From a virus: a stretch of DNA of 64,000 nucleotides. The DNA lies in IMG/VR virus record IMGVR_UViG_3300042691_038416, positions 1 to 64,000 of that record, one strand, 5' to 3'. The notes below the pieces were generated by a model. The model worked only from the letters and a program-made list of their open reading frames with translations. It was not told where the DNA came from and searched no databases. The stretch's first letter is position 1, and each line of letters opens with the position of its first letter. Positions 5,534 through 51,729 of this stretch are shown here, piece by piece. Both the position numbers and the translations under genes were made by a program.

Positions 5534-6295
5534 TTAAGCGAATTTATCTATTTTAGCTTGTAAAGCTTTAATTTGTGTTGGAATATTACCAATCATTTCT
5601 TTATATTGGTCCATAGTGATTTCTTTAGATTTTAATTTCTTAAGTAAATCATCTTTTTTAGCATTAAGTTTAGCTAATTCATCAACCCATCTTCCTAAAT
5701 TATCAGTAGCTTTAGTTGGTGCTATTACTGGTTCTTCTTCAGGTGTTTCTTCTTCATCACCAGTGTAATAAGTATCAACTGTTTCTTCTTCTTCTGGCTC
5801 TTCTTCAGGAGTAAGAGTTGGTAATTCTGGCTCTTCTTCAGCTGGTGTAATGGTTTTTTCTCTTTTAGGAGTTAAAGCACCTGCTGCTCTAAGATTACTA
5901 ATAATAGGATTTAATTCAGAATCATTTTTAACACCTAAAGCTGTACCTAAGTCTTTTTGAGTTATACCTTCTTCACCAGCTGCTTCAACTGCCGCTAGTA
6001 AAGCTGATGTTCTACCAGCTGTGTATATTTCTTTGGCTAGAGCAAATTTAGCTGGATCTTGAATCTTAATTAAGCTAACTATATTAGCCATTTCTTTGAT
6101 TTTTTGACCAGTTCCAGTTTCAATACTCTTAATGTCAGTATTATCTTTAATTCTATTTAATTCATCACTTGTTTTATAATCAATAGCAGATGTTTTTCCA
6201 CTTTGAGTAGTTACCATTGCTGTTTTTTCTCCAGCCTCAGTTAATGCTATTACAATTTCTTCTTTAATATATTTAATTAAATCCTTACGTTTCAT
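5534..6295 (-). CDS. KEEI-leader protein next to terminase, winged-helix-like
   Basis: This 253-aa protein begins with the leader LIKYIKEEIVIALTE, shared by other late proteins here. Residues about 100-140 (EGITQKDLGTALGV, then ISNLRAAGALTP) look like a winged-helix DNA-binding unit. A Glu/Pro-rich linker follows, then a C-terminal coiled coil. Position directly before the large terminase makes a small-terminase role possible. The leader and a class A motif 14 nt upstream instead suggest a virion protein. Function is not settled. Confidence 0.8.
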   Translation of the reverse strand: MKRKDLIKYIKEEIVIALTEAGEKTAMVTTQSGKTSAIDYKTSDELNRIKDNTDIKSIETGTGQKIKEMANIVSLIKIQDPAKFALAKEIYTAGRTSALLAAVEAAGEEGITQKDLGTALGVKNDSELNPIISNLRAAGALTPKREKTITPAEEEPELPTLTPEEEPEEEETVDTYYTGDEEETPEEEPVIAPTKATDNLGRWVDELAKLNAKKDDLLKKLKSKEITMDQYKEMIGNIPTQIKALQAKIDKFA

Positions 6296-6308
6296 TAGCG
6301 AGTTTTAG

Positions 6309-6319
6309 TTATAAATATT
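6309..6319 (-). promoter_or_regulatory. Class A late-type motif
   Basis: Sense strand AATATTTATAACTAAAA lies about 13-20 nt before the ATG of the KEEI-leader/terminase/portal unit. Confidence 0.55.
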
Positions 6320-6848
6320 ACAGATTTAAATAAGATTTTATCTGTTTTATTCTATCCTCAGTAGAGCCACTAATTATTCCGAAATTTTTTATTTCATTTA
6401 ATTTAGAAGAACATAGATATTTAATCATATTATCTATTGTATTTCTGTAATCTGTATCTGTAGCGCGAACATTATTATCCTCAATAGGAACTCCAGCTGG
6501 ACTTACATAGAATATCCAATCATATTCTTCTATAAATTGAGAAGCATACTCTTCAAAATTAATTTTTTCACCTAACTCTACAGATTTAGCACAATTTGTA
6601 AATGCCATAACATCTATAATTGTTCTATCAGTTATAATGTTTTCATTTATTAATTCACTACAACGTTCTGCTAAAAATATAGTTTGACCTTTTAATGTAC
6701 TATCTGTATTTAATGGAATGCCTAAATCACGCAAATATTTACTACGCTCAGTAGCAAACTTATAGTCTTTAAATTCAGGTAATTCTTTTAACGCATTTAC
6801 TAATGTAGTTTTTCCTACACTTACTGTTCCACAAAAACCTATTTTCAT
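6318..6848 (-). CDS. P-loop kinase/ATPase of the NadR/AAA_28 type
   Basis: It starts with a clean Walker A, MKIGFCGTVSVGKTT, followed by ATERSKYLRDLGIP and a short Walker-B-like IFYVSPAGVP strand. The 176-aa size fits small nucleoside or nicotinamide-riboside kinase-like P-loop proteins common in T4-like phages. The substrate cannot be read from the sequence. It forms a two-gene unit with the 73-aa gene (1 nt apart) behind a class B promoter, which suggests early/middle expression unlike the flanking structural genes. Confidence 0.8.
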   Translation of the reverse strand: MKIGFCGTVSVGKTTLVNALKELPEFKDYKFATERSKYLRDLGIPLNTDSTLKGQTIFLAERCSELINENIITDRTIIDVMAFTNCAKSVELGEKINFEEYASQFIEEYDWIFYVSPAGVPIEDNNVRATDTDYRNTIDNMIKYLCSSKLNEIKNFGIISGSTEDRIKQIKSYLNL

Positions 6849-6849
6849 A

Positions 6850-7071
6850 TTAATGTCTCATTTTATTACCACTTTGTTTATAGAAAGGTAATCCAACTCC
6901 TTCTTTTTTACGTTTTTTAAAATCATCTTTAGTTAAGAAAATACCATTTAAATAATATTCTTCTTTACCATTTGGATGAATTAAAGCAGGACCATCAGCG
7001 TTATGTAATTTATTGTCCTTAATAAAACGAATTGTACCGTCAGGTGACTTGTATTTTTTTACAGGATTCAT
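6850..7071 (-). CDS. Small MORN-like-repeat protein
   Basis: This 73-aa basic protein carries a pattern of the form LHNADGPALIHPNGKEEYY, typical of short phage proteins with MORN-like or toxin-antitoxin-like repeats (H-x-dGPA...Y-x-nG). No catalytic motif is visible. The leader AAAAAGTTATG has no Shine-Dalgarno sequence, and the class B promoter is immediately upstream. Confidence 0.7.
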   Translation of the reverse strand: MNPVKKYKSPDGTIRFIKDNKLHNADGPALIHPNGKEEYYLNGIFLTKDDFKKRKKEGVGLPFYKQSGNKMRH

Positions 7072-7084
7072 AACTTTTTATTTT

Positions 7085-7113
7085 AATATATGTTAAAATT
7101 TTAAGAAAGCCAA
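7085..7113 (-). promoter_or_regulatory. Class B bipartite promoter
   Basis: TTGGCTTTC, 12 nt, CATATATT on the minus strand, upstream of the 73-aa gene and kinase. Confidence 0.75.
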
Positions 7114-7116
7114 ATT

Positions 7117-7398
7117 TTATGGATTTCTTCTAACAAAAAGTGGTGAAAAAGTTAAAACAGCATCATCAATAACTGTATCATCTGCTCCCCAATTATTTAA
7201 AGTAGCATGATCTAGTTCTACATCAAACATATCAACATGTTTAGTATTTCCGTTTCCGTCTTCCCAAATAAGTGTACATTGAGCAATAGCTGATGTAGCT
7301 CCTCTCATCAAAGGTGTGACAGTCCAAATAATAGCATTTGCTTGTTTTTCTTGCAGTTGTCCAAATTGTATTGGTTCAATTAAGATATATGGTTCCAT
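7117..7398 (-). CDS. Unknown small protein after tail-fibre gene (93 aa)
   Basis: The protein is beta-rich and acidic (TLIWEDGNGNTKHVDMFDV) with no recognised domain. It follows the 374-aa fibre gene by 6 nt and precedes no further late gene, so it is the last gene of the fibre operon. A fibre accessory or tail protein is plausible from position only. Confidence 0.7.
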   Translation of the reverse strand: MEPYILIEPIQFGQLQEKQANAIIWTVTPLMRGATSAIAQCTLIWEDGNGNTKHVDMFDVELDHATLNNWGADDTVIDDAVLTFSPLFVRRNP

Positions 7399-7404
7399 AA
7401 TTTT

Positions 7405-8529
7405 TTAATATAAATAAAATGCGTATCTATGTTGTACAGTTGTAATACCAGACGCAGCCTGTGATGTAGCTAATGTTGTTAATCCAGAACCTGCAGTACC
7501 GTTTGTTTTATTACTGTTTGTAAAGTCTATATTACCAAGACTAATAGTGCCCGCCGCGGCTGAACCAGCAAATGCTATAGCTGGGGCTGTTGTTTGTGCT
7601 GAGGTAGAGTATAATGCTCCAATATAATAAATTCCTGTCGCTGCTGAGTATGTTGATGTGAATGCTTTTGTTTGGAATGAATTGGCTGCTCCTTTCCATA
7701 TATTACCATCATTTGATGATGATGCTACTAATGTTAATGTTCCTCCACTTGCTCGGTATAAACCAACTCCATTATAGTTATTGGCTGTGTAGTTACCTTG
7801 GGTTTGTTGTTGAAATTTAACCCCAGTGATAGTGGTTGTTGTATATATATAAATAGCTGTATAAAGACATACTCCACTAGTTAAAGATTGTCCTTGAGTG
7901 GCTAACATAACTACTGGACAGCCTATATTATATCCTTTAATTACACTGCCAGCAGCTTGTTGAGCTGCTATTTGATGACTTAATCCAGCAGCCGATGATA
8001 TTACATATCCATTAGCATCAGTATTTAATACTGCTACCGCTGAACCAGTTAATGCAGTTGCGGAGTTATAAGTTGGAATTTGCATTTGTTTTGTATGCAT
8101 ATCCCAACTTGCTACAATTGCATCACTACCAGCATTAGTACCTCTTAATAATCTAGTTAAGTTTTGATAATTATCAAACATTGAAGCGGAAGTATAAGTT
8201 CCACCTGGTGCTTGTAATAATATTTGACCTCCTTCACCAGTACCTCCAGCTGGAGATGGTCCGATGACTAAAGTATTTTCATTAGCTCCTAAACTAGTAG
8301 CACCTACAGTTAAACTACCTGTAATTAAAACATTTTGATTAAGTGTATTAACATAAGATGATGTTAAAGAAGAGGTTATTGGATTAGTTGATATAATTGA
8401 ATTAATAGTTAATGTTCCTCCAGATGCATTTATATCACCAGAGACTGTTATGCCTGAGTTATTGATAGTGAGTCTATCAGTACTAGCTATATTTATTATT
8501 GTATTGTCTGAGCTTTTTATTACTGACAT
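7405..8529 (-). CDS. Tail-fibre-like protein (374 aa)
   Basis: The composition is Ser/Thr/Ala/Gly-rich and beta-repetitive, typical of phage fibres. It includes the module SYVNTLNQNVLITGSLTVG, which recurs in the 271-aa fibre protein as SYVNSLVQNVIITGSLDI. The C-terminal half (YTAIYIYTTTTITGVKF) looks like a receptor-binding or host-derived jelly-roll-like domain. It lies in a four-gene fibre cluster, presumably the host-range locus. Confidence 0.75.
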   Translation of the reverse strand: MSVIKSSDNTIINIASTDRLTINNSGITVSGDINASGGTLTINSIISTNPITSSLTSSYVNTLNQNVLITGSLTVGATSLGANENTLVIGPSPAGGTGEGGQILLQAPGGTYTSASMFDNYQNLTRLLRGTNAGSDAIVASWDMHTKQMQIPTYNSATALTGSAVAVLNTDANGYVISSAAGLSHQIAAQQAAGSVIKGYNIGCPVVMLATQGQSLTSGVCLYTAIYIYTTTTITGVKFQQQTQGNYTANNYNGVGLYRASGGTLTLVASSSNDGNIWKGAANSFQTKAFTSTYSAATGIYYIGALYSTSAQTTAPAIAFAGSAAAGTISLGNIDFTNSNKTNGTAGSGLTTLATSQAASGITTVQHRYAFYLY

Positions 8530-8541
8530 ATTTTATATCTT

Positions 8542-9291: not shown

Positions 9292-9358
9292 TTTTATATC
9301 AATTATGGTTGGGTACTGGGTTGTACCAGCCCACTTCCTTTTAAAGGCCTATAATTTG

Positions 9359-9368
9359 TTATAAATAT
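9359..9368 (-). promoter_or_regulatory. Class A late-type motif with hairpin-rich leader
   Basis: Sense strand TATATTTATAACAAA lies 68 nt before the 249-aa fibre gene. The intervening leader holds the palindrome CCTTTAAAAGG and a hairpin GGTAC-AACCCA-GTACC. This is a much longer leader than at other class A sites. Confidence 0.5.
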
Positions 9369-9378
9369 AGATAATAAA

Positions 9379-9606: not shown

Positions 9607-9610
9607 AACT

Positions 9611-9799: not shown

Positions 9800-9818
9800 A
9801 ACTTAATTATATGAAATT

Positions 9819-10742: not shown

Positions 10743-10774
10743 TCTTAACGTTTTTAAAGATTATTTTTATTTTA

Positions 10775-10784: not shown

Positions 10785-10785
10785 A

Positions 10786-15814: not shown

Positions 15815-16489
15815 TTACTTAATTTTTTGTAATCTTCGATATACTTCATGAAGTGGTTCTTCACTTAATGCTCTATTTATTCTAGAGAGTAATGGATCTT
15901 CACCACTTGGTTTTCGACCGCGTTTAGATAAACCTAAAGCTTTTGCTTTTAATTTAGCTACTTGATCAGCAGTAAGTGTTTCTGTTTGTCCACCACTTTT
16001 AGGTATAACATATGTAATTTCCTCTTCAGAAGGTACATAATTTGGATCAGTTATCCAACGTTGCTTTAATAATCTTTCAACTCCTTCTCTACTTGTATCA
16101 CTTGCTTTTCTACCTTTTTTACCTGGAGTTTCAGGTTTTACTTTTTTAGGAATAGCGGTTTCTGCTTTATCTGCTATGACACCACTAGCAATAAGTTCCT
16201 TAACTTGAGGACCAAATCTAGTGTTTTTCATGTTTAAGATTTGGGCTAAACCTTTAACAAAATTTCCTGTATTTGGATCTTTATATCCCAATCTAGTCAT
16301 ATCATAATCAGTAGCACCTTCAATAGCTGTAATTATTTTAACAACATAGTTGTCTTCTGGGTATAATCTTTTAATTTTAGCTGCTTTTTCAGGATTAACT
16401 ATAACTAATCCTTTACCAAGACGGTCTTCAGATATAGTTATTTCTTCTCTAACAATACTTCTAATTATTTGAACTAGTTTATTTGCCAT
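15815..16489 (-). CDS. KEEI-leader protein with AT-hook-like motifs
   Basis: The leader is LVQIIRSIVREEITISE, after which a basic domain follows. Two short AT-hook-like sites, KKGRKAS and KRGRKPSG, lie near residues 124 and 195, suggesting contact with AT-rich DNA. The middle region (residues about 40-100) has a globular, unknown fold. Class A motif 16 nt upstream and a strong terminator mark it as a single-gene late unit. A DNA-binding internal virion protein is inferred. Confidence 0.75.
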   Translation of the reverse strand: MANKLVQIIRSIVREEITISEDRLGKGLVIVNPEKAAKIKRLYPEDNYVVKIITAIEGATDYDMTRLGYKDPNTGNFVKGLAQILNMKNTRFGPQVKELIASGVIADKAETAIPKKVKPETPGKKGRKASDTSREGVERLLKQRWITDPNYVPSEEEITYVIPKSGGQTETLTADQVAKLKAKALGLSKRGRKPSGEDPLLSRINRALSEEPLHEVYRRLQKIK

Positions 16490-20196: not shown

Positions 20197-20817
20197 TTAC
20201 TTTTTCTTGGTAGCTAATTTAGTAGCGGTAGCATACATTTTAGCTTTTTCTTCTTTAGACTTACCAAAGCTCTTAGATTTTTTCATGCTTTTCACAATAT
20301 CTTCTTTTTTCTCTTTTTGAGCAGCAGTCATTTTCTTTTTAGCTTCTTCTAATTTAGCATTATATTCAGTTTCTGAAATGATGCCTGCTCTTTTTTGCAT
20401 AAGCAACATTTGTTCTTCATTTAATGAATCTTCTTCTAATTGAGGACCAGCTGGAGGATCAATGGTAACTTCGTCAACTACTCCTTCTTCTTCTAAACCA
20501 TCTTTTACAACTTCTTTCTCATCACCTTTACCAGCTTTATTTTTCATTTTTTCAAGAAGTCTTTCAGTTTTTTTCTTGTAACTTTCAAGAGCTTTAACTT
20601 CTTTTTTAAGTTCATTAAGTTTAGACTGATCAATCATTTCATGCATTGTTTCATCTAAACCTTCTAAATTAATTTTTTTCTCACGAATAGCAATAGCTTC
20701 TTCACAAGCTCTAATTTTAGCTTCTTGAGCTGCGATATTACCTGATGCCTCTACTTCACGAATATATTCTTGAATTGATTCTCTAATAAGTTGTCTAAGT
20801 TGGGTATTTTGATCCAT
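20197..20817 (-). CDS. KEEI-leader coiled-coil protein (206 aa)
   Basis: The leader is LRQLIRESIQEYIRE followed by a long Glu/Lys coiled coil (residues about 35-105), an acidic linker and a Lys-rich basic tail (KKMTAAQKEKKEDIVKSMKK). An internal SLNEEQMLLMQKRAGII segment recurs in related late proteins. It is a likely virion or scaffold component. Class A motif upstream, strong terminator downstream. Confidence 0.75.
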   Translation of the reverse strand: MDQNTQLRQLIRESIQEYIREVEASGNIAAQEAKIRACEEAIAIREKKINLEGLDETMHEMIDQSKLNELKKEVKALESYKKKTERLLEKMKNKAGKGDEKEVVKDGLEEEGVVDEVTIDPPAGPQLEEDSLNEEQMLLMQKRAGIISETEYNAKLEEAKKKMTAAQKEKKEDIVKSMKKSKSFGKSKEEKAKMYATATKLATKKK

Positions 20818-22140: not shown

Positions 22141-22391
22141 TATTTTTTAAGTTTTAAAAAGCGTTGAGCTATTTTATTAGCTAATTCTTTTTCAGCTTCT
22201 GAAAGATTTTCATTTTTAGGTGTTGGTTTCACACCAGGAGCTGGTTTATCAAATCCTCTACGTTTTGGTGTAGTACCAGGTTTAGTAGTAGGAGGTGCTT
22301 CAATAGTTTCCTTTTCTTTAGCAGGAGCATTCTCAGCTAATATTGATGCTAATTCTTCTTGAATTATACGTCTCAAATCACTTACTTTCAT
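22140..22391 (-). CDS. Small KEEI-leader protein (83 aa)
   Basis: The leader LRRIIQEELASILAE is one of the best matches to the shared pattern. After it comes a Pro/Thr/Lys-rich disordered region (TTKPGTTPKRRGFDK) and a short C-terminal helix. If the leader were cut at ILAE, a 63-aa basic peptide would remain, similar in style to T4 internal peptides. It sits in a late unit behind the 856-aa gene with a 14-nt overlap. Confidence 0.7.
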   Translation of the reverse strand: MKVSDLRRIIQEELASILAENAPAKEKETIEAPPTTKPGTTPKRRGFDKPAPGVKPTPKNENLSEAEKELANKIAQRFLKLKK

Positions 22392-25235: not shown

Positions 25236-25654
25236 TTTGTTTTACCCCATTTTTTACCTTTACCTGGTTGCCCACATTGAGCTGGTGTTGGACGACATGA
25301 TGGATATTTAGCACGTTTTTCACCTTTTTTTCTACCACATGCCTTACATTTTTTTCTACCTGTTTTTTTATCTTTACGACAAGTATTACAATCTACCCAA
25401 CCACCTTCTTTACCTGAGGTACCTTGACGTTTGAACCATTTATGAAGTGATTCGTCTTCTTGAATAATTTCTTTAATTATTTCTTTTAATTCTTCCTCTT
25501 TTATACCTTTCCAAATTTTACCTTGGCGACATCTAACAACAGCACCTGATTTATAAGCAGATGGTTTATCGAACTTACGATCAGCAATACGTAAACATCT
25601 GTCACGTTTTGCTTTTTCTTCAAGTAGTTGTATAATTATATCTTTTAAATTCAT
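25232..25654 (-). CDS. DUF5872-like Cys-rich basic protein
   Basis: This 140-aa protein ends in a Cys/Lys-rich module (WVDCNTCRKDKKTGRKKC, then KACGRKKGEKRAKYPSCR and PTPAQCGQ) that I associate with DUF5872 of phages and giant viruses; function unknown. The module probably binds zinc and nucleic acid. Residues about 55-68 (ELKEIIKEIIQEDES) carry an internal copy of the KEEI-type pattern. The gene couples by overlap to the amidase and the 88-aa protein. Confidence 0.75.
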   Translation of the reverse strand: MNLKDIIIQLLEEKAKRDRCLRIADRKFDKPSAYKSGAVVRCRQGKIWKGIKEEELKEIIKEIIQEDESLHKWFKRQGTSGKEGGWVDCNTCRKDKKTGRKKCKACGRKKGEKRAKYPSCRPTPAQCGQPGKGKKWGKTK

Positions 25655-26310: not shown

Positions 26311-26687
26311 TATATACCTATATTAATTAATTGAGGTTCCTTCACAACAAACTTAACTACTCCTCTTATTTTATTTATATTACTTATTATTTGATTAATA
26401 GTATCTATATCAAATTGTCCAAATTTAGTGTATGGATATGGGTCTACTTTAATAACTACTCTATCATATTTGTATCCAGGTTTAGGAACATTAGGTATAT
26501 ATTCTTCAGTATCCATAGTTGTAACACCAGTCACAGAACGGATGTCTGAGAATATTTGTGTTTGAGTTTTCTTTTTTAAATTAGTAACTAATAAACCTTC
26601 AATTTTATATAATTTAGAAGCAGAATCCTCACGTAATGTTTTACGTATTTCCTCTTTAATATATTTTTTAAATTCTGATTTATTCAT
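26310..26687 (-). CDS. KEEI-leader protein with small alpha/beta domain (125 aa)
   Basis: The leader FKKYIKEEIRKTLREDSAS is the clearest match to the shared pattern. It is followed by a ~100-residue ferredoxin-like alpha/beta domain (LVTNLKKKTQTQIFSDIR, VVIKVDPYPYTKFG). It sits between a KEEI-leader gene and the amidase, coupled by a one-base overlap with the amidase. A virion protein is inferred. Confidence 0.75.
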   Translation of the reverse strand: MNKSEFKKYIKEEIRKTLREDSASKLYKIEGLLVTNLKKKTQTQIFSDIRSVTGVTTMDTEEYIPNVPKPGYKYDRVVIKVDPYPYTKFGQFDIDTINQIISNINKIRGVVKFVVKEPQLINIGI

Positions 26688-26688
26688 A

Positions 26689-27597
26689 TTACCAATATCC
26701 TGAGAATGTTGTATTAAATCCTAATGCTTTAGCATAACGAGGCAAACGACAGCTCCAATATGAAGCTTTTGTTTTATCTTTCTTTTGAGCGCAATTATGA
26801 CGTTTAGCAAACGCTTTACGTGCTTTTGGGTTATTTAATTTAGCTCTTAATCCTCCACCAGCCATACCAAATGATACTTTTTTAATACGCTTGGATTTAG
26901 GATCACGAACATATACATAAAATTTCTTTGAACCACCACGTTTTGGTTTATTTAAAGCGGGTGTTTTCTTTTTATCTGCCTCATTTAATCCTACAAAATA
27001 TTTTGGATATTTAGTTACTACATTATTAATAGCATCTCTATCCATTCTAGTAATAGCGTCTAAAAGATCATCATGTAATTTACTAAAAAATTCTTTAGAT
27101 TTAGGATCTTGAGATCTTTCATATCTCATCTTAAGATCTTTTAATTTATCTAAATAAGGTAAAAATAATATACTAGTTGTATATTCAGCGTCTTCTTTAC
27201 TACCTAATGTACTATCATAATCATCATCACTCATTAGTAAATCTAAAGGTACTTTTCTACCCTCATATAAACCAAATTTACCTAAATCAGTTTCATTAAG
27301 AAATGCTTTATCAATATCATTTAAGAAAATAGCTTTTTGTTCATATAACTCACGAGCTTCAGCCCATAAATTTAAAAATGCTTCTGAGCCATATCTGAAT
27401 GCGTTTTCAGTTAAAGGTAACTTATTAGTCACATGATACTGCATATTTTCAGTCATAGTAATCTTAGTACCTAAATTTTCATTAAGTACTGGACCTTTAT
27501 TACCAACATTCTCACATGAATGACATCCACAATTACATTTATCCTCTGAGGGAGGAGTGGATAGTACTTCACGTATAAGTTTTTGAATTTTATTCAT
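26689..27597 (-). CDS. Leader-bearing virion-type protein with HNC/WSCR domain (302 aa)
   Basis: It opens with the variant leader MNKIQKLIREVLSTPPSED, then a Cys/His cluster CNCGCHSCEN. The C-terminal ~80 residues (KKFYVYVRDPKSKRIKKVSF, then RHNCAQKKDKTKASYWSCR) match a domain I recall from many aquatic phage virion-associated proteins. Its ATG lies only 2 nt after the class A motif. It heads a multi-gene late unit ending with the 856-aa gene. Confidence 0.78.
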   Translation of the reverse strand: MNKIQKLIREVLSTPPSEDKCNCGCHSCENVGNKGPVLNENLGTKITMTENMQYHVTNKLPLTENAFRYGSEAFLNLWAEARELYEQKAIFLNDIDKAFLNETDLGKFGLYEGRKVPLDLLMSDDDYDSTLGSKEDAEYTTSILFLPYLDKLKDLKMRYERSQDPKSKEFFSKLHDDLLDAITRMDRDAINNVVTKYPKYFVGLNEADKKKTPALNKPKRGGSKKFYVYVRDPKSKRIKKVSFGMAGGGLRAKLNNPKARKAFAKRHNCAQKKDKTKASYWSCRLPRYAKALGFNTTFSGYW

Positions 27598-28673: not shown

Positions 28674-29185
28674 TATGTTATAGGGGGTATTTCTTCAGTA
28701 GGTTCTTCAATTGGTTCCTCATCAGCTGGGGCTTCTGGAGCTGTCTCAGGAGCTGCTGATTCTTCAGGAGCTGATTTTTCTGGTGTTGGTTTAGCACCGT
28801 AAGATAAAATTCTAGCAATTGCTTCTATACAATTTTGCTCTTCACTTAAATTTAATAAGTAATATTTTTTACCTTCAACTTTAGCAATCCAAGTTCTGTC
28901 AGTATATATAAGATAAAATACTTGATCATTACCTAATATAATACGGAATGTAGTAGGGCGTGGTGCTACCCATTCAATATCTTTTAAAAATAATTCATAC
29001 TGATCTGTTAAAATTTTAACAATAGTATCTTTAAGAGTAGGGAATTTAACTAATACTGGAAATCTCTCATTATCTAATGAGACCACAGAAGGACTATCTA
29101 AATCCACCTCAGTTGATTTAGCGGTACTTGAGTAGACTTTTTTTACTAAATCTTTAATTTTATTTTTTAATTCGTCTTTAGTCAT
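28673..29185 (-). CDS. Leader-like late protein with acidic tail (170 aa)
   Basis: The N terminus MTKDELKNKIKDLVKKVYSS is a looser version of the shared leader. It is followed by a ~90-residue domain (PVLVKFPTLKD, IEWVAPRPTTFRI, FYLIYTDRTWIAK) that I recall without function, and a Pro/Glu/Ala-rich disordered tail. It is coupled to its neighbours by a 1-nt overlap and a nearby overlap. Confidence 0.75.
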   Translation of the reverse strand: MTKDELKNKIKDLVKKVYSSTAKSTEVDLDSPSVVSLDNERFPVLVKFPTLKDTIVKILTDQYELFLKDIEWVAPRPTTFRIILGNDQVFYLIYTDRTWIAKVEGKKYYLLNLSEEQNCIEAIARILSYGAKPTPEKSAPEESAAPETAPEAPADEEPIEEPTEEIPPIT

Positions 29186-29781: not shown

Positions 29782-30372
29782 TTAGAATCTAGTTTCTAAA
29801 TCATCAATAATTGATCCAGCCATACTTGTGAAATCAATATTGTTATTGTTTTTACCCATATTCCAAACATGTTGTAATGCAATTTTCATATATTCTACTT
29901 TATCTGAAGAATTATCATCATCTAACATTTCCTCTAATGATTCGGCTACAGCTTGTTGTCCTACTACTTGTGTTCTAACTAACATAGTAATAGTATTACC
30001 AATTTGGTTGGTTAATTTTTCATCACCTAATGCTTTAGCATTTGCTAATGCTTTACTTAAAGCGTCTTGAATAGCTTTAACTTTAGGATCAATATCAATT
30101 TCATTAGATACCTCAGGAGACATAGTATCAGTTGGCATTTCCATACCAGTGTCTACAGTTGGTTCTTCAGTATCCATACTCATATCTAATTCTACTGAGT
30201 CATCTTGTGGAGCTACATCTTTTTTCTTTTTCTTAGCTTCACCTAATGAAGAATGTATGATTTCTTTAATTTTATCTCTAAGTGTAGATTCAGTTAAAGT
30301 ATGAGGAGTTTCGCTTTCAATGATTATTTTACCGAAAGCTAACTTTTGCATTTTTTCATATTGGTTGTTCAT
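29782..30372 (-). CDS. Late protein with internal KEEI leader (196 aa)
   Basis: The shared pattern appears at residues about 28-45 (LRDKIKEIIHSSLGEAKKKK), after a short N-terminal arm. An acidic linker and a C-terminal helical domain (LEEMLDDDNSSDKVEYMKIA) follow. It is preceded by a class A motif and belongs with the KEEI set. A virion role is inferred. Confidence 0.75.
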   Translation of the reverse strand: MNNQYEKMQKLAFGKIIIESETPHTLTESTLRDKIKEIIHSSLGEAKKKKKDVAPQDDSVELDMSMDTEEPTVDTGMEMPTDTMSPEVSNEIDIDPKVKAIQDALSKALANAKALGDEKLTNQIGNTITMLVRTQVVGQQAVAESLEEMLDDDNSSDKVEYMKIALQHVWNMGKNNNNIDFTSMAGSIIDDLETRF

Positions 30373-31621: not shown

Positions 31622-32146
31622 TTATTTTAGTAACTTTTTGATTTCTTCTTTAACTAATTTTTTAAGTTCACTCATTGATTCTTCACTCTTTAAATCAAAA
31701 TCTAGACCAGCATTATCCATAACAGTACCAATAATTTTTTCAGTTACTTTTTTAGTTGGATTACCAGTTGATGGAAATACTAAAGTATCTCCTACTATTT
31801 TCCATTTTAATAAACTAGGTTTAGATGACAAAGTCTTAATAAAAGCATCAATAGCAGCTTTAGTTTTTACTGGGAATGGTTTACCTCTTTCTTTTTCTGC
31901 TTTTTTCTTAGCAAAGGGTTGACTAGGTCCAAAATGATCAGTTACTGCTTTTTCAATATCCGCTTTAGTATTTCTTACATTAGAAACATAAGCTCCATAG
32001 TTATCTATTTTTTCTAAAGCAGCTACAGCATCTTTAACTGTACCACCTAGAGGTGTAAGTACTAAGTCATAAGTTAATTTTTCCTTATTACTTTTTTCTT
32101 CACCACCTTCTTCTTGTTCTACTAACTTATATTTAAATTTATTCAT
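31622..32146 (-). CDS. Late protein with C-terminal KEEI-like motif (174 aa)
   Basis: This 174-aa Lys-rich protein ends in MSELKKLVKEEIKKLLK, a C-terminal copy of the shared leader pattern. It overlaps the HAD gene by 4 nt, so the two are co-translated. If the leader is a targeting tag, a C-terminal position would be unusual. Confidence 0.72.
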   Translation of the reverse strand: MNKFKYKLVEQEEGGEEKSNKEKLTYDLVLTPLGGTVKDAVAALEKIDNYGAYVSNVRNTKADIEKAVTDHFGPSQPFAKKKAEKERGKPFPVKTKAAIDAFIKTLSSKPSLLKWKIVGDTLVFPSTGNPTKKVTEKIIGTVMDNAGLDFDLKSEESMSELKKLVKEEIKKLLK

Positions 32147-32673
32147 AGTCCTAGTTTTTCTAATTCATTTATTACTTGCCCAGTTGATGTATATAATATA
32201 CCTATACCACCTGCTACTTTCCATTCGTCTATATTTTTAGGTAAATCGTCAATAAGAATAGATTTACCTGAAGCATAATCTTTTTTATTTTCTCTTTTAG
32301 ATAAAATTAATCTGGTTCCAGGTAAATTTTCTTGAACCCATAATTTTTTACCATAGCGAGATGAATAATCAGATGAAGGAGCTGATAGTAATGATGGTTT
32401 ATATTTTGATATATAACTCCATAATTGTTTACCTCCAGATGTCCATGGCATTTTAGACCAAAACTGTTCACCTACTTTAGTGATTAGTTCCCAAAACTTT
32501 TTAGTACCAAATCTAGTTTCATACTCATTAGGAGACATACCTCCAAACTGTTCAAAACGTCTATTAAAATCACATAGTACACCATCCATATCACAATATA
32601 TTTTATATTGTGCTACTTGAGCTGCTTGTTCTTCTTCTCTTAACTGTTTATATATATTTGTTAATTTATACAT
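32143..32673 (-). CDS. HAD-family phosphatase / 5'-nucleotidase-like
   Basis: The HAD motif I, IYCDMDGVLCDF (Asp28, Asp30), motif II LLSAPSSD and motif IV ILIDDLPKN are present, fitting 5'(3')-deoxyribonucleotidase-like enzymes. A ~20-residue N-terminal extension (MYKLTNIYKQLREEEQ) precedes the domain and loosely resembles the shared leader. It lies beside the nucleotidyltransferase genes, hinting at a nucleotide-processing cluster. Confidence 0.8.
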   Translation of the reverse strand: MYKLTNIYKQLREEEQAAQVAQYKIYCDMDGVLCDFNRRFEQFGGMSPNEYETRFGTKKFWELITKVGEQFWSKMPWTSGGKQLWSYISKYKPSLLSAPSSDYSSRYGKKLWVQENLPGTRLILSKRENKKDYASGKSILIDDLPKNIDEWKVAGGIGILYTSTGQVINELEKLGL

Positions 32674-34807
32674 TCTTAATTGAATCTTCCCAATTTCTAA
32701 AAATTATATTTCCGTTAAGGTAGGCTTCTTTTTCCAACTCTTGTAAGTTAGAATCCTCATTAGTATTAGTAGTGTTAACATTATTTAATCTACCTTCATT
32801 ATCTTGAATACGATGAATCATTTCATGTGAGTAAGAACGCAACACATCTTTTGGATGACGATTTAAAGTATATAAAGTAATTGAACATTCATTAGGATTA
32901 TAATATGCGGTTTTACCTAAAATATTTTCAGCGTTTTTTACATCACTATTTATTATTTTTAATTTAGGTAAAGGTGATATATTTAAACCTTGATCCATCA
33001 TATATTTAGTTAATGATGCTAAAGCACTTTTAAAATCAGTTGGTTGAGAATGCATACAACCACAATTTTCATTTAACTCAATTTTAGGATCTGGAGTCTG
33101 GAAATCCTTTTTACGCATTATAGTTTTAGCTATAATTTTATCAGACATTTGAACTAATGGAATATTGATATTAGTCCTATTATCTGATGCTACTACTTCT
33201 CTGTATTTAGTAAGGAAATCATTTAATTCATTTTTCTTACGAGCTAAACGTTTAAAAAATCCAATAAGTTCAGCTGGTGAGATAGGTTTGATATTTCTAG
33301 GATCATTTAATCTATCAAAGAAATGTTTAGTAAAATCAACATCTACAGGTGATAATTCCTTATCAGCATATGCTTCAACTGATTTAAGATCAGCTTGAGA
33401 CATTTCTTCTTGAATATTAAATATTTTCTTAATTTTTTCTTGAGGTATTCCAGCTGGTAGAAATTTAGATATATCTTGTTCAGGCTGTAATGCTTGTCTA
33501 AAATCTGTGGCGTTTATATTTTCACCTTGAGATACAGTTGTTCCACCATCAAATACTTTAGCATTCATATAACGAGGATCATTACCTACTTTCACATATC
33601 TATCTTCTTCTCCTTTACCATATACAGCTATATAATTGTTATTTTGATTAGCTTCTATAGTATCTAAAACATATTTTACAGGTGAACCCTGAATAATTTT
33701 AATATCTAATTTTCCGCCTAATAATGTATTATATAGTTCCCAAATAGCTTTACTTTGTTCAGCAGTAACACCCTCAACTGGTTTAGCTGAGATTAGGATT
33801 TCTATTTTATCTGCTATATTAAGTAATTTTTTAGCTACTTCAAAATGTCCTTTATGAGGTGGTTTAAATTTACCTGGGTATAAAGCAATTATTGGATTTG
33901 ATTCTTGTTCAAATAATAATGGTAAAAGTAATGCTCTAGTTAAAGCATTAGCTTCTAATAAACTATCAACAGAATTTAAAGCTGCTTGTTTATTATCACC
34001 TTTAGGTGTATTAACTTCACCACTTTTAATAGATACCATTGATTTAAAAATACCTTTTACTCTATTTTTAGAACGAGGATTTTTTAAATTAGTAGATAAA
34101 TCTTTTAATAATGTTTTAAAATCAGCGTCTATATTATAATTTGTAAATAATTTTTTAACATCATTCCAATTAGATGATTTCCAAACATCTGTTCTTTCAG
34201 TTTCTTTAAAATTATCTAAAGTAACAATACGTAATGTTAAAGCTTGACTTGATAAATTAAATTCATATTCTTGATTAGGTTCTAAAGCAGGTACATTTTT
34301 AATACCTAAACGAGCAAATATTTCTTTAGGATCTTCTTCTAAACATATTACTTTAGTTAAACCTAATAATAAACCCTGTACCTCAGCTGGATAATCTAAA
34401 AATGTATTTTTAAATGTAGATTCTTCTTCACTAATAGATACAATATTATCTATTTGAACAAATTCACCAGGCATTCCTACTATCGGATATAATATAGTCA
34501 CTAATTCTCCACTACTAAGAGATTTCTTACCTTTATATTTATCACTTTTAAATGGTACAATTACTGAGTCAGGTTGAGAAGCAAAAAATTTAGCTAAATC
34601 TTGTTTAATTATTTTTTTATCTTCACCTTCTAATTGTACAATTAAGTCAATATCACCAAAATCTTGTTTTGTTCCTGCGTTGTATGAGCCAGTAATTTTA
34701 GCTGATTTAAAGCCAGAAAATTTAGATAATACTTTTTCAATATAATCTTTAACTGTATTCTCAACAGCTGCTCTAGATATTCTATTTCCTCCTGCTGAAC
34801 CTGACAT
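32666..34807 (-). CDS. Three-domain nucleotidyltransferase / HxGH / HExxH protein
   Basis: Residues 39-56 (GSYNAGTKQDFGDIDL) are a DNA-polymerase-beta-type nucleotidyltransferase core. Residues 308-321 (YPGKFKPPHKGH) give the HxGH of cytidylyltransferase/NMN adenylyltransferase-like folds. Residues 661-665 (HEMIH) are a HExxH metallopeptidase-like helix with EKEAY near 690. The region 490-570 resembles a phage domain I recall in similar proteins. The combination is unusual. It is coupled to a second nucleotidyltransferase and the HAD gene. Confidence 0.8.
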   Translation of the reverse strand: MSGSAGGNRISRAAVENTVKDYIEKVLSKFSGFKSAKITGSYNAGTKQDFGDIDLIVQLEGEDKKIIKQDLAKFFASQPDSVIVPFKSDKYKGKKSLSSGELVTILYPIVGMPGEFVQIDNIVSISEEESTFKNTFLDYPAEVQGLLLGLTKVICLEEDPKEIFARLGIKNVPALEPNQEYEFNLSSQALTLRIVTLDNFKETERTDVWKSSNWNDVKKLFTNYNIDADFKTLLKDLSTNLKNPRSKNRVKGIFKSMVSIKSGEVNTPKGDNKQAALNSVDSLLEANALTRALLLPLLFEQESNPIIALYPGKFKPPHKGHFEVAKKLLNIADKIEILISAKPVEGVTAEQSKAIWELYNTLLGGKLDIKIIQGSPVKYVLDTIEANQNNNYIAVYGKGEEDRYVKVGNDPRYMNAKVFDGGTTVSQGENINATDFRQALQPEQDISKFLPAGIPQEKIKKIFNIQEEMSQADLKSVEAYADKELSPVDVDFTKHFFDRLNDPRNIKPISPAELIGFFKRLARKKNELNDFLTKYREVVASDNRTNINIPLVQMSDKIIAKTIMRKKDFQTPDPKIELNENCGCMHSQPTDFKSALASLTKYMMDQGLNISPLPKLKIINSDVKNAENILGKTAYYNPNECSITLYTLNRHPKDVLRSYSHEMIHRIQDNEGRLNNVNTTNTNEDSNLQELEKEAYLNGNIIFRNWEDSIKNV

Positions 34808-35769
34808 TACGCTGTTTTATATTTAGATAAGTTAGAATTGTCTGGTAGAAATTTACCTTTAAGGCCTAAACGATCTTGATTTTTAATCCAATAGTCTTGT
34901 AAATCATTTGGAATATCAGCTCTAGTTGAGTCTAAAATTCTTAAATATGTATCAAACACTCTATTCAATTTATCTTCAGGTAAATTCTTTTTAATATAAT
35001 CCATTAATTCAAAATAGTCATTTAGAATATCTTGAGTTAAATTAATGTTAAATCCTTTATTTAAAGCTTGTAATGCTTCTTGAGGACTAGTAGCTACTAT
35101 CTCACCAGTACTTTTTAATTTTACTCCTGTACCGTGACTGAAAGTCATATCTAATGCCTGGAATAAAGCTACCATTAATTGAGTTCTATGTAAACCTTTA
35201 ACATTATCTTTGTAAGTATTAGAATAGTAACTAAAATTTAACCAATCTATATTACCTACGTTAATATCAATTTGAACTGCTTTATCTTCTATTTGCTCAC
35301 CATTCTCATTAAACTGAGGGAAATTACAAAATATGGATCCGTTAGCAGTTGATTTATTATCAGTTTCCATAAACTCAGATTTTTCTTCCATGTTAGTAGA
35401 TACTAACTCTAACATGGCTCTAAGTTTACTTTGAGCCTCAGTTGCGCTTTTAGCTCTTTTTCTTATTTTTTCATAAGTAGCATTAAACTCATCAGAATTA
35501 ATATTCCAATCAGATAATAATGGTTCACCATCTTTAATAAAATGATCAACACTAAAACCTAAATCAATATCACCAGACTCGTCTTTTTTACCGACTGAGC
35601 CTAAAGTACTAAAGTCAAATTTTACTTTAGGATATATCTTTTTTAATTCCGCTACAAATTTTTCTAATGTAGGTTTAATATATTCTTTTTTTATACTAGA
35701 TGTGGTACCGAATACGTTACCTCCTTCATCAAGATATATTTCCCTTAAAAGACTGATTAAAGATACCAT
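34807..35769 (-). CDS. Pol-beta-like nucleotidyltransferase (320 aa)
   Basis: Residues 57-70 (GSVGKKDESGDIDL, Asp67 and Asp69) form the nucleotidyltransferase core. The N terminus SLISLLREIYLDEGGNVFG is a weak leader-like stretch followed by the conserved TTSSIKKEYIKPTLEK. I recall this family in aquatic phages without an assigned substrate. It starts the nucleotidyltransferase unit with a class A-like motif. Confidence 0.8.
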   Translation of the reverse strand: MVSLISLLREIYLDEGGNVFGTTSSIKKEYIKPTLEKFVAELKKIYPKVKFDFSTLGSVGKKDESGDIDLGFSVDHFIKDGEPLLSDWNINSDEFNATYEKIRKRAKSATEAQSKLRAMLELVSTNMEEKSEFMETDNKSTANGSIFCNFPQFNENGEQIEDKAVQIDINVGNIDWLNFSYYSNTYKDNVKGLHRTQLMVALFQALDMTFSHGTGVKLKSTGEIVATSPQEALQALNKGFNINLTQDILNDYFELMDYIKKNLPEDKLNRVFDTYLRILDSTRADIPNDLQDYWIKNQDRLGLKGKFLPDNSNLSKYKTA

Positions 35770-47626: not shown

Positions 47627-47988
47627 TATATTTGTGAACTTGAAACTTGTAATTCTACTATTTGTTGATTAAGTTCTAAATTTTGTTGTTGTAATAAATT
47701 TATCTCATCTATTAAAGCTTGAATATCATCACTCATAGGAGTAAAATTAATATATTCAGAACTTGTCTTCACAAGATATTCATGTGAATTAGTAGCTCCT
47801 TCTTTTGGAATTTGAAGAAATAATTGTTGATAATCTTGAAAAAATTGATCAACAGTTATCGTAGGGGCAGTTAAAGCCGCTTGTTCAGCTGGAGTAATGG
47901 TAGTGGCTAATTGAGAAAATTTAGTATCTATAACTCTCTCATATTGACTCTTAACATATACTTTTTTATTTAAATTAACTGTTTCCAT
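47626..47988 (-). CDS. Unknown baseplate-operon protein with coiled-coil end (120 aa)
   Basis: It ends in a Gln/Leu coiled coil (INLLQQQNLELNQQIVELQV). It overlaps its neighbours by one base on both sides, so it is part of the structural operon. A small tail or chaperone-type protein is inferred. Confidence 0.7.
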   Translation of the reverse strand: METVNLNKKVYVKSQYERVIDTKFSQLATTITPAEQAALTAPTITVDQFFQDYQQLFLQIPKEGATNSHEYLVKTSSEYINFTPMSDDIQALIDEINLLQQQNLELNQQIVELQVSSSQI

Positions 47989-49100: not shown

Positions 49101-49109
49101 TGTTTATTT

Positions 49110-50963
49110 TTATAATGATACTACTCTACCTTGAATATCAGCGTTCGGATATTTTACTTCAAAAATCATAGGATCTATTGATGGATAAACTACTCCATTT
49201 TTAGTAGCTCCAGGAATATCATAAGCATATTCTGAGTAGCCTAAACTAGTTCCTACAAAATTTGAAATTTCAATATTTTTAACTGTTTGAACTCCTTCTA
49301 TTTTATCTAATAGAATATATAAATCTCTTAATATAATAGGTTGATTAATTTGCCAATTTTCAATAGCAAAATATGTTTGTAATGCTGTTATACAATTAGT
49401 TAAAACTAAATTATTATTATAATTAGGTAAAACAATAATATCAAAATTAACTCCTATATTAATAACAAAAGCATCTTTTATATTAATAGAATCATTTACC
49501 ATTCTATATTGAGAAAGATAAGTTATTAAATTTTGTTTTAAAGCATATGAAGCATTAATTAAATTTTTATTGATATCATAAGTTAAAATATATAAATCTA
49601 ATATACCTAAGTTTTCACCAGGAAGAGCATTTCTTAATTTTGTTGGTTCAATATATGCTTTAGCTACTTCACCATATTTAGAAGGCATAGATAAAGCTCT
49701 TACTAAATAGTCATCTTGAGTAACATTTCGTTGTTGACTAGCGAAATTAGATATTGAGTTTTGTCTTATTTCTTCAATTGAATCTCCATCTCCTCCTCCA
49801 CTAGCTGCTTCAGGATTAGTTATAGCTAAAGAATTAAAAATATTATCAGCTAAAGCAGTATTAGAAATATTAGGATTTAAAAAATTTATAGTACCATTTA
49901 ATGTGTTTAAAGTATTAGCAGAAATATTAGCTGTGACTCCACCTCCTGTTAAATATCTAAATGTTAGTGTGGTATTTGAAGGAGCAATACCATAAGTTTT
50001 TGTATATAAAAAGTTTGAAGGTGAATACGCTGTTGTGAGTTTATCTTGTTCAAATGGTAAACCAATACCTACATTATCTGGGTTAGGTATTATAGTTTCA
50101 TCTGAATCTGTGGTAGTACCTGCTCCGAATTGAATTTGTAGAGTATTAGAATCTTTAAAACGGGTAGTAAATCTATTTTGTATTTTTTTAAGTTTTAATA
50201 AATAAGGTGTATTACCTGGGTTTTGAGATAGATTAGGATCATTAACATTAGTATTTTTGATACTATCATAAATCATTTCTTGACCTAAATAATCTACTTC
50301 ATACCAATTATTACCATCACTATCAACACAATCTAGTATACCAATTAAATTAGAAGTACTTATTTCAACTGTTGAGAATTTAATAGGAGAAGTGAATGAA
50401 AATGTAGTTGTATTAATAGCAGCTGATATAGCTTTTCTTGTTTTCTTTAATAAAAAAGATTGAGGATTAACTCCAGCTATTTCATAAATAGTAATCTCAG
50501 TTGGATCATTAGAGCTAGAAACTGTAAAATCAACGGGATCATTTATTAAAAATGAGTTATTTGAAGAATCAACAGCTGTAGAATTACCAGCTATATATAA
50601 AGCATAATCAAAATCAGGTACATAAGAACCACCAGATATTTTAGATGGAACTTTTTGATAAAAATCAATATCTACAACTGCCACACCAGTAACATTTGGT
50701 TTATAACCAAACATATAAGCTAATTCAAATAAATTATTTGACTGACGAGCAAATTGTAAATAATTTTCTTGTACTTGATTATCCAAATAAAATGACAAAA
50801 CATCACCTACATATGATGCCATCTCAATAAACATCATCCCAGGAGATGATGGACTAAAATCATTATATGTTGTTGGATAATAGGTTTTAGCATAATCAAT
50901 TAAGCTTGTCCTATAATCACTAAAACTTTTATTAAGATATTTTATATTTTTAATTACAGCCAT
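49110..50963 (-). CDS. Baseplate wedge protein, gp6/baseplate-J-like
   Basis: The N-terminal TYNDFSPSSPGMMFIEMASY, then YVGDVLSFYLDNQVQENYL, is the classic T4 gp6/baseplate-J start. The C-terminal half contains SISNFASQQRNVTQDDYLVR and LRDLYILLDKIEGVQTVKN of this family. It links wedge units around the baseplate hub. The gp25-like gene lies 2 nt upstream, as in other myoviruses. Confidence 0.9.
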   Translation of the reverse strand: MAVIKNIKYLNKSFSDYRTSLIDYAKTYYPTTYNDFSPSSPGMMFIEMASYVGDVLSFYLDNQVQENYLQFARQSNNLFELAYMFGYKPNVTGVAVVDIDFYQKVPSKISGGSYVPDFDYALYIAGNSTAVDSSNNSFLINDPVDFTVSSSNDPTEITIYEIAGVNPQSFLLKKTRKAISAAINTTTFSFTSPIKFSTVEISTSNLIGILDCVDSDGNNWYEVDYLGQEMIYDSIKNTNVNDPNLSQNPGNTPYLLKLKKIQNRFTTRFKDSNTLQIQFGAGTTTDSDETIIPNPDNVGIGLPFEQDKLTTAYSPSNFLYTKTYGIAPSNTTLTFRYLTGGGVTANISANTLNTLNGTINFLNPNISNTALADNIFNSLAITNPEAASGGGDGDSIEEIRQNSISNFASQQRNVTQDDYLVRALSMPSKYGEVAKAYIEPTKLRNALPGENLGILDLYILTYDINKNLINASYALKQNLITYLSQYRMVNDSINIKDAFVINIGVNFDIIVLPNYNNNLVLTNCITALQTYFAIENWQINQPIILRDLYILLDKIEGVQTVKNIEISNFVGTSLGYSEYAYDIPGATKNGVVYPSIDPMIFEVKYPNADIQGRVVSL

Positions 50964-50965
50964 TA

Positions 50966-51373
50966 TTATGAGAATGTTATTTGAACTTGATCATTTATTC
51001 CTGTGTCTATTATACTATATGTTATTATTATCTCAATTTCATTAGTATCAGGATATTGTAAGATATCTAATTTTTCTACTTTAATATTAGGAAAATAATA
51101 ATTTATTAATTGTTGGATAGAATCTTTAAGATTATTAATATTATTTGTTGTAATTTGTTCAAAAATAAATTGTCTTAAATTAGCTCCAAAATCAATATTT
51201 AAAAATCTTTCAGTTTTATTAGTTAATAAATAATTTAATAAATTATTTCTAATAGCGTCTTTTGTAGTATATGTTGAAAAAAAAGTAGAAGGAGCATTAA
51301 AAGGCAAAGACACACCTATAGCAGTGCCTGGTTTAGTATCTAAAGGAAATATCTTTTTTGCTCCAAATGCCAT
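50966..51373 (-). CDS. Baseplate wedge protein, gp25-like
   Basis: The 135-aa protein has the GPW/gp25 core: TYTTKDAIRNNLLNYLLTNK, TERFLNIDFGANLRQFIFEQ and ending EIIITYSIIDTGINDQVQI. This lysozyme-like wedge protein attaches sheath initiation to the baseplate. Its order with gp6-like is conserved among T4-like phages. Confidence 0.9.
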   Translation of the reverse strand: MAFGAKKIFPLDTKPGTAIGVSLPFNAPSTFFSTYTTKDAIRNNLLNYLLTNKTERFLNIDFGANLRQFIFEQITTNNINNLKDSIQQLINYYFPNIKVEKLDILQYPDTNEIEIIITYSIIDTGINDQVQITFS

Positions 51374-51375
51374 AA

Positions 51376-51729
51376 TTATTTATTTATTAAATTCATTATT
51401 TGATCTAATCCTAATTGTCCTTGAGGTAAAGCACTTCCTTCAGCCATAGTATTAATAGGACCATTTATTTTAAATTCACCAGATAAACCAGTTTCAGGAC
51501 CTTTAGCCATATCACCTAAAATATCCATATATGCTTGTTTAGTATTTATAGGAGTTTTAGGTACTTGATTTGATGTGAAATTTAAAGTTCTATCATCACT
51601 TACCTGGTAAGATTCTTTGATAGGTTGCTTGTTAGAACGAATTGTTTCAAGTAGAATATCTTTTAATTCTTCTTGAATTGCTTCTTTAACTGCTTCTTTG
51701 ATAATTTTTTTAAGTATATCAGTTTTCAT
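51376..51729 (-). CDS. KEEI-leader protein in the baseplate operon (117 aa)
   Basis: It starts ILKKIIKEAVKEAIQEELKD, a long version of the leader with a second LLETIRS site. The rest is a short, Gln/Asn-rich, mostly disordered protein ending in GQLGLDQIMNLINK. The class A motif lies only 3 nt before the ATG. If it is a baseplate part rather than a head part, the leader hypothesis would be weakened. Confidence 0.72.
   Translation of the reverse strand: MKTDILKKIIKEAVKEAIQEELKDILLETIRSNKQPIKESYQVSDDRTLNFTSNQVPKTPINTKQAYMDILGDMAKGPETGLSGEFKINGPINTMAEGSALPQGQLGLDQIMNLINK

What the first reader, a model, noticed from the sequence alone, without database searches (positions are those of the whole stretch)
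5534..51729. A shared cleavable-looking leader (LxxxIxEEIxxxLxE) on about ten unrelated late proteins
The same 15-20 residue amphipathic pattern opens proteins starting at 6295 (LIKYIKEEIVIALTE), 16489 (LVQIIRSIVREEITISE), 20817 (LRQLIRESIQEYIRE), 22391 (LRRIIQEELASILAE), 26687 (FKKYIKEEIRKTLRE) and 51729 (LKKIIKEAVKEAIQE). It is looser at 27597 and 29185, internal at 30372 (LRDKIKEIIHSSLGE) and in the DUF5872 gene, and C-terminal in the 174-aa gene. The bodies after it are unrelated (coiled coils, alpha/beta domain, AT-hook protein, winged-helix-like protein). Seen: recurrence and association with class A motifs. Established: T4 packages internal proteins with a short N-terminal capsid-targeting sequence cut by gp21 protease after (L/I)xE. 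Inference: this could be an equivalent head-loading tag, a system for stocking the capsid with effectors, possibly including neighbours with weak tags such as the HAD phosphatase and the nucleotidyltransferase.
Basis: partly seen in the sequence, partly recalled or inferred. Interest (0 to 1): 0.87.

Follow-up and report, generated by a model that had tools for sequence, protein, structure and literature searches.

The report
Phage head-loading tags copying scaffold peptides
A large virus of bacteria, probably infecting Bacteroidota, appears to put short cut-off address labels on a dozen or more otherwise unrelated proteins so that they are packed inside its head before the DNA, and some labels look copied from the proteins that build the head, which would make this a wider version of a trick known mainly from phage T4.

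Summary
In this 124-kb T4-like phage fragment the strict motif opens 6 of 180 minus-strand ORFs (shuffles: mean 0.06, maximum 2) and never occurs inside one. A leader HMM finds 77 N-terminal hits among 86 seed-free hits of 10 bits or more in 1,941 proteins of the clade; reversed and shuffled controls give none.

(1) An HMM of leader residues 1-14 only predicts [LIVM]xE just downstream in 51 of 60 proteins (null 11.9±2.9), with Glu mostly at residue 20. (2) Relatives encode an S77 (T4 gp21-type) prohead protease, with LxE/IxE-type sites at the expected places in capsid, core and protease proteins. (3) The leader is one of at least four exchangeable classes: orthologous bodies carry different leaders or none, and homology starts at or within a few residues of the predicted cut. 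(4) Class 4 matches the C-terminal tail of the prohead scaffold in 17 relatives; class 1 resembles a segment inside the core protein.

Best reading: T4-like capsid-targeting peptides, not detectably homologous to T4's, on a large cargo set. The copy beside gp25 (51376-51729) is doubtful. No virion data exist; injection and cargo functions are inference.

The parts
6236..6295 (-). class-1 leader of the 253-aa protein (gene 5534-6295): MKRKDLIKYIKEEIVIALTE|AGEKTA, predicted cut E20|A21
   Evidence: HMM 30.4 bits; immuto_191 has a different short leader (MKKLIRIVE) and homology resumes at AGEKTA
16427..16489 (-). divergent leader of the 224-aa protein: MANKLVQIIRSIVREEITISE|DRLGKG
   Evidence: orthologues L023 and L016 carry other leader sequences of similar type before the shared body; no class-1 HMM call of its own
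20755..20817 (-). class-1 leader of the 206-aa coiled-coil protein: ...LRQLIRESIQEYIRE|VEASGN
   Evidence: HMM 32 bits; body 46% identical to the C-terminal coiled coil of prohead core protein '199' of L089
20371..20415 (-). class-4 (scaffold-tail-like) motif inside the same protein, flanked by LxE-type sites: LNE|EQMLLMQKRAGIISE|TEYN
   Evidence: class-4 HMM 32.4 bits, but this sequence was one of the class-4 seeds; flanking sites read from sequence
22332..22391 (-). class-1 leader of the 83-aa protein: MKVSDLRRIIQEELASILAE|NAPAKE
   Evidence: HMM 34.8 bits
25182..25235 (-). class-3 leader of the 88-aa protein: MKKEFNITDWVSKTRLKE|HEGEEYPPYMYS
   Evidence: class-3 HMM 23.5 bits, but this sequence was one of the class-3 seeds; orthologues have class-2 leaders MIRLIDILKE|HKEGEEYPPYMYS and MIKLVDLLKE|AEKEEYVPYMYS
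25619..25654 (-). short class-2-like leader of the DUF5872-like protein (MNLKDIIIQLLE|EKAKRDRC)
   Evidence: orthologues vary in leader length and sequence before the conserved (K)RDRCLRIADRK body; Pfam DUF5872 below cut-off
25457..25492 (-). internal class-1-like segment ELKEIIKEIIQE|D in the same gene
   Evidence: sequence
26628..26687 (-). class-1 leader of the 125-aa alpha/beta protein: MNKSEFKKYIKEEIRKTLRE|DSASKLYK
   Evidence: HMM 35.9 bits; AF2: helix 3-21, confidence minimum at residues 16-23, confident body from about 27; orthologues L098/L122 have class-2 leader MIKLIDILNE|SYNPKIYQIKG
27544..27597 (-). leader-like N-terminus of the 302-aa protein: MNKIQKLIREVLSTPPSE|DKCNCGC
   Evidence: orthologues ...LSKPLSE|DKC (L120) and ...LSKPLKE|DKC (L112)
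29141..29185 (-). half leader (MTKDELKNKIKDLVK) of the 170-aa protein, no LxE cut site
   Evidence: conserved in orthologues without a site; counted as weak
30238..30372 (-). compound tag of the 196-aa protein: class-4/scaffold-tail motif QYEKMQKLAFGKIIIE|S then LTE|STLRDKIKEIIHSSLGE|AKKKKK
   Evidence: HMM built only from scaffold C-tails hits residues 2-15 at 9.8 bits
32117..32146 (-). short leader of the 174-aa protein: MNKFKYKLVE|QEEGG
   Evidence: conserved as KYKL(V/K)E|QE in orthologues
31625..31672 (-). C-terminal class-1 motif SELKKLVKEEIKKLLK of the same protein
   Evidence: HMM 15 bits; kept in orthologue L095
32635..32673 (-). class-2-like leader of the HAD/5'-nucleotidase-like protein: MYKLTNIYKQLRE|EEQ
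   Evidence: conserved MYKLTD(L/I)Y(K/R)Q(L/I)KE in relatives; immuto orthologue has MKKVMGNLADLLLE|ES; NT5C weak Pfam match
35725..35769 (-). class-2-like leader of the nucleotidyltransferase-fold protein: MVSLISLLREIYLDE|GGNVFG
   Evidence: E15 invariant in 11 leader-bearing orthologues; immuto orthologue starts M|GGNVFS with an in-frame stop upstream; AF2 residues 1-22 below pLDDT 50
51670..51729 (-). class-1-like N-terminus of the 117-aa gene next to gp25; doubtful as a head tag
   Evidence: HMM 30 bits, but conserved position in the baseplate cluster of immuto (immuto_156) and no leader swap seen

Best explanation
The motif is one of several interchangeable capsid-targeting leaders used by a clade of T4-like phages. 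A short amphipathic peptide, usually N-terminal and sometimes internal or C-terminal, docks a late protein onto the prohead core or scaffold. The S77 prohead protease (T4 gp21 type) then cuts after a Glu in an (L/I/V)-x-E site at the end of the peptide, releasing the body inside the head before DNA packaging; the cargo may be ejected with the DNA. Shown here by computation: recurrence, N-terminal position, site position, exchangeability, gene location, and sharing with scaffold and core proteins. Inferred: docking partner, cleavage, packaging, ejection, cargo function.
For: Leader enrichment against controls. Non-circular site test: HMM of residues 1-14 only, [LIVM]xE in residues 15-23 in 51/60 proteins vs 11.9±2.9 for shuffles (maximum 21 in 2,000), P1 Glu at residue 20 in 41. 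S77 protease by Pfam in immuto and Mel-JY01, with GELDHP and SSRG blocks conserved in alignment; 23 of the 80 terminase loci carry it. MCP (LVVE|S type), core protein (ILSE|A) and protease (QLTE|G) carry matching sites. Leader swaps or absence on the same body: 5534 vs immuto_191, 26310 vs L098, 24969 vs L104/L114, 34807 vs immuto_181, two further families. Scaffold tail = class 4 in 17/17 scaffolds inspected, and an HMM of scaffold tails alone finds about 25 non-scaffold proteins, mostly at their N-termini (1 reversed, 0 shuffled hits). Core protein carries a class-1-like segment. Tagged genes cluster beside terminase/portal/protease: G001 mostly 117-135.6 kb, LR756508 at 33-43 kb of the fetched stretch around the protease. 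AF2 places the leader outside the confident body in two cargoes. Literature: T4 CTSs are 10-19 aa, gp21 cuts after L/I-x-E, IPIII residues 4 and 7 target, 8 and 10 affect processing (PMC9026906); MIKLTDILNE has hydrophobics at 4, 7, 8 and Glu at 10.
Against: No proteomics for any member. The own protease, scaffold and capsid genes lie beyond the contig end. A cut-site PSSM trained only on capsid/core/protease sites barely separates the cargo block from the rest of the own genome (p=0.04). 15 of 82 class-1 leaders lack the LxE. P1' is not restricted. T4 CTS and core proteins do not score with the leader HMMs. One strong copy lies in the baseplate cluster and two in the 85-87 kb region. The swap junctions were picked by inspection, not scored by a formal junction statistic.
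Confidence: 0.84

Rival explanations
1. The leaders are docking helices that place proteins in the tail or baseplate, or in a cytoplasmic assembly complex, and are never cut.
For: A strong copy is encoded next to gp25/gp6 and is conserved in immuto_156; a half copy opens the terminase; 15 of 82 class-1 leaders lack LxE.
Against: Site position is strongly non-random; leaders swap at the predicted cut; the motifs occur in the scaffold tail and core protein, not in the tail genes inspected other than the gp25 neighbour.
Confidence: 0.08
2. The tagged proteins are extra scaffold or core components: the motifs build the prohead core, are digested and leave the head, and little cargo stays or is injected.
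For: 20197-20817 is homologous to the core protein's coiled coil; T4 core proteins gp22/67/68 are digested the same way (PMC9026906); several bodies hold further internal sites.
Against: Several tagged bodies are compact, conserved or enzyme-like domains (HAD, nucleotidyltransferase fold, ferredoxin-like alpha/beta) with no obvious scaffold role.
Confidence: 0.25
3. The resemblance is convergence of short Leu/Ile/Glu/Lys amphipathic helices in an A+T-rich genome, not a functional tag.
For: The genome is about 30% G+C and its proteins are K/E/I-rich; some half motifs look like chance resemblance (terminase).
Against: Reversed and composition-matched shuffled controls give no hits at 10 bits; 77/86 hits are N-terminal; leader swaps on shared bodies.
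Confidence: 0.02

Closest known systems
T4 capsid-targeting sequences of internal proteins IPI, IPII, IPIII and Alt, cut by gp21 (S77)
   Same: short N-terminal peptide on unrelated late bodies; cut after L/I-x-E; diverse, fast-changing cargo; class-2 leaders share length (10 aa) and hydrophobic spacing with MKTYQEFIAE
   Different: no detectable sequence homology; at least four leader classes; many more tagged genes in one block; class 4 shared with the scaffold C-terminus; internal and C-terminal copies
P1 Dar system (DarB N-terminal packaging signal)
   Same: N-terminal signal that loads proteins into the head (PMC9024508)
   Different: P1 Dar N-termini show no common consensus by BLAST, and P1 has no identified separate scaffold protein (same paper)
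phiKZ/SPN3US head proteins cut by gp175/gp245
   Same: gp21-related protease; cuts after a Glu motif; several head proteins with 20-24 aa or longer propeptides (PMC10052503)
   Different: propeptides mostly longer (111-254 aa); no shared short leader on many bodies described in the passages read

Membership tests
T4-type capsid-targeting sequence (works like) | short N-terminal peptide (about 10-20 aa) on unrelated bodies | tested here: met
T4-type capsid-targeting sequence (works like) | (L/I)-x-E cut site at the end of the peptide | tested here: met
   51/60 vs 11.9 expected; actual cutting not testable
T4-type capsid-targeting sequence (works like) | gp21-type S77 prohead protease in the same phage | tested here: inconclusive
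   present in immuto, Mel-JY01 and 23 of the 80 terminase loci including L016 (86% TerL identity); own contig ends before the expected position
T4-type capsid-targeting sequence (works like) | tagged proteins found in virions with the leader removed | not testable with these tools
   no proteomics found in the held library for this clade
T4 IP/CTS sequence family (homology) | sequence similarity to T4 IPI/IPII/IPIII leaders or bodies | tested here: not met
   HMM and phmmer comparisons gave no significant match in the output seen
Peptidase S77 | Pfam S77 match and conserved GELDHP...SSRG blocks in the relatives' protease | tested here: met
   E 9e-35 and 6e-30, alignment
P1 Dar | Dar protein homology | not tested
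   no Dar-like name in Pfam/PHROGs output for the proteins scanned; no direct comparison run

The most novel reading that the evidence does not exclude
The clade uses a docking code borrowed from head-building proteins: class 4 is a portable copy of the scaffold's C-terminal tail and class 1 of a segment in the core protein, so each leader class would have its own binding partner, and any late gene could be made head cargo by gaining one of at least four cassettes that join its body at a protease site.
Probability: 0.45. Interest if true: 0.86.

Novelty: new variant of a known kind. Interest (0 to 1): 0.74.

Why it matters
It would extend capsid targeting from a T4 and P1 speciality to a clade of environmental phages (80 terminase-bearing contigs examined here, a cultured Flavobacterium phage and a 484-kb huge phage) and give a sequence rule for finding head cargo among unannotated phage genes. 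The link to scaffold tail and core protein suggests what the tags bind, which appears unsettled for T4, and natural leader swaps offer ready-made tests. Candidate cargoes (HAD phosphatase, nucleotidyltransferase-fold protein, coiled coils) are proteins that might act in the first minutes of infection.

Tried and rejected
A cut-site PSSM from MCP, core and protease sites was too weak alone. The first site-enrichment test (67/82) was circular, because the HMM includes the site, and was replaced by the 14-residue test. A tblastn of a 20-aa consensus leader against cultured phages found nothing. PHROGs names no tagged protein; only an unnamed family matched 26692-27597. Fold search of the 125-aa cargo body gave only weak ferredoxin-like/ACT-like matches. 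A convergence-only reading was rejected on controls.

Full report
What was checked. The window is the first 64 kb of a 124,139-bp linear virus record. TerL places it in a T4-like clade: Flavobacterium phage immuto (59% identity), Microcystis phage Mel-JY01 (53%) and the 484-kb LR756508 (44.5%). The contig starts just past the portal region, so this phage's own protease, core, scaffold and capsid genes are not in the record; relatives supply them.

The six named starts are exact. The strict motif occurs in the first 34 residues of 6 of 180 minus-strand ORFs (five of them in the window), against a shuffle mean of 0.06 and a maximum of 2, with no internal match. A class-1 HMM from the seven own copies, searched in 1,941 proteins from own, immuto, Mel-JY01 and 110 related loci, gives 86 seed-free hits of at least 10 bits, 77 at the N-terminus; reversed and block-shuffled sets give none. 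Two more copies lie at 85253-85759 and 86349-87314.

The cut site. The clade's prohead protease is Peptidase S77. In relatives, the capsid protein carries ENQAKQ(L/I)(V/I)xE just before the Gp23 domain, the place corresponding to T4's known gp23 cut, and the core protein and protease carry ILSE|A and QLTE|G type sites; these are read from position and sequence, not measured. As a non-circular test, an HMM was built from leader residues 1-14 only; among 60 non-redundant N-terminal hits outside the own genome, 51 have [LIVM]xE in residues 15-23, against 11.9±2.9 for shuffles (maximum 21 in 2,000), with P1 Glu at residue 20 in 41. The next two 9-residue stretches carry the pattern in 2 and 1 of 60. 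An earlier version of the test was circular and is not used. Training a site matrix on capsid/core/protease sites alone separates cargo genes only weakly in the own genome.

Several leader classes. Beside class 1 (MKKSELKxxIKEEIxxxLxE), relatives use class 2 (MIKLxxILxE, about 10 aa), class 3 (FDLRKYLAEGKL) and class 4 (FxRMQKLAGIITE). Their seeds were picked by eye from these sets, so the HMM counts describe spread, while the reversed and shuffled counts control for composition.

Leaders are exchangeable. On the same body: KTLRE|DSASKLYKIEG (26310) vs MIKLIDILNE|SYNPKIYQIKG; RLKE|HEGEEYPPYMYS (24969) vs MIRLIDILKE|HKEGEEYPPYMYS; ALTE|AGEKTA (5534) vs MKKLIRIVE|AGEKTA; a family with class 4 (GIISE|SQYKEKLAEVDINLDD) vs class 3 (KFLSE|GQLEKNLQEVDINLDD). 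The nucleotidyltransferase-fold protein 34807 has (D/N/T/S)E|GGNVF-type junctions in leader-bearing orthologues and M|GGNVF in immuto, where an in-frame stop precedes the start. These examples were chosen by inspection; no formal junction statistic was computed.

Link to the head builders. All 17 scaffold proteins inspected (gene upstream of the capsid gene) end in a (I/V/L/M)E...R(M/W/F)xxLA(G/F) tail. An HMM built from these tails alone retrieves about 25 other proteins, mostly at their N-termini, including own 29782-30372 at 9.8 bits; reversed gives 1 hit and shuffled 0. The core protein encoded just upstream of the protease contains a class-1-like segment (ESxLRSxIxxLIKExLxE) in about 8 of 21 sequences by reading, and own 20197-20817 is 46% identical to that protein's coiled coil in L089. 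Internal copies have an upstream [LIVMF]xE in 18 of 20 cases vs 9.9 expected; several of these are the scaffold tails themselves.

Location. In the 135-kb relative G001, classes 1, 2 and 4 lie at 108-129 kb around terminase, protease and scaffold, with one class-3 hit at 48.6 kb; further class-2-like starts reach 135.6 kb by reading. In LR756508 class-1 N-termini of 8 bits or more cluster at 33-43 kb of the fetched stretch beside the protease, with none in its first 30 kb. In the own block, primase, exonuclease, thymidylate-kinase-like, amidase and oxidoreductase genes carry no leader.

Structure. AF2 of the 125-aa cargo gives a low-confidence helix 3-21, a confidence minimum at 16-23 (site E20|D21) and a confident body. 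In the 34807 protein residues 1-22 are below pLDDT 50 (site E15|G16) and the body resembles Pol beta-type nucleotidyltransferases weakly (E 2e-4, TM about 0.35).

Comparison with known systems. T4 CTSs are 10-19 aa, cut by gp21 after L/I-x-E, with IPIII residues 4 and 7 needed for targeting and 8 and 10 affecting processing; Alt is processed at both ends (PMC9026906), a precedent for C-terminal tags. P1 DarB uses an N-terminal signal but Dar N-termini show no consensus (PMC9024508). The T4 leaders and core proteins show no significant match to the leader HMMs, so this is filed as working like a CTS, not as a member of the T4 family. Literature searches found no description in this clade; the library is open-access only, so prior description cannot be excluded.

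Limits. No virion data. Ejection, effector role and each class's binding partner are inference. The gp25-adjacent gene 51376-51729 is probably not head cargo: it is conserved in the same place in immuto and shows no leader exchange.

Noticed in passing
window 387-1187, residues 108-131 (about 795-866): The protein encoded next to the portal-side gene contains KLKE|MSATGTGASFTPGAGENYA, matching in register the capsid protein's predicted cut and new N-arm (VVE|QSQTGTGATFTPGQGENWA in L016); the LxE-before-SxTGTGA pattern recurs in six relatives of this protein.
   Followed up: partly
L014 (LR756508) 31-43 kb: Huge phage with a run of small ORFs starting with class-1-like leaders beside its S77 protease and portal genes.
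   Followed up: partly
record G000 85253-85759 and 86349-87314: Two further class-1 leader proteins far outside the late block, so tagged genes are not confined to it.
   Followed up: no
window 32143-35769: Cluster of a HAD/5'-nucleotidase-like protein, a protein with a cytidylyltransferase-like domain and a Pol beta-fold-like nucleotidyltransferase; Mel-JY01's cytidylyltransferase-like protein itself starts with a leader-like MGKLINILLSE.
   Followed up: partly
L112 9259-10014; G001 134757-135581: P-loop (GxxGxGK) kinase-like proteins with class-2 leaders (MIKLTELLRE, MIGLISLLKE) in relatives.
   Followed up: no
L016 707-1378; L049 843-3050: Cargo proteins with a leader at the N-terminus and a scaffold-tail motif at the C-terminus, recalling T4 Alt's processing at both ends.
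   Followed up: no
window 58941-59324 and 61605-61904: Two related small proteins made of repeated (K)GRPxNxxSxRQ units, resembling AT-hook-type basic repeats.
   Followed up: no
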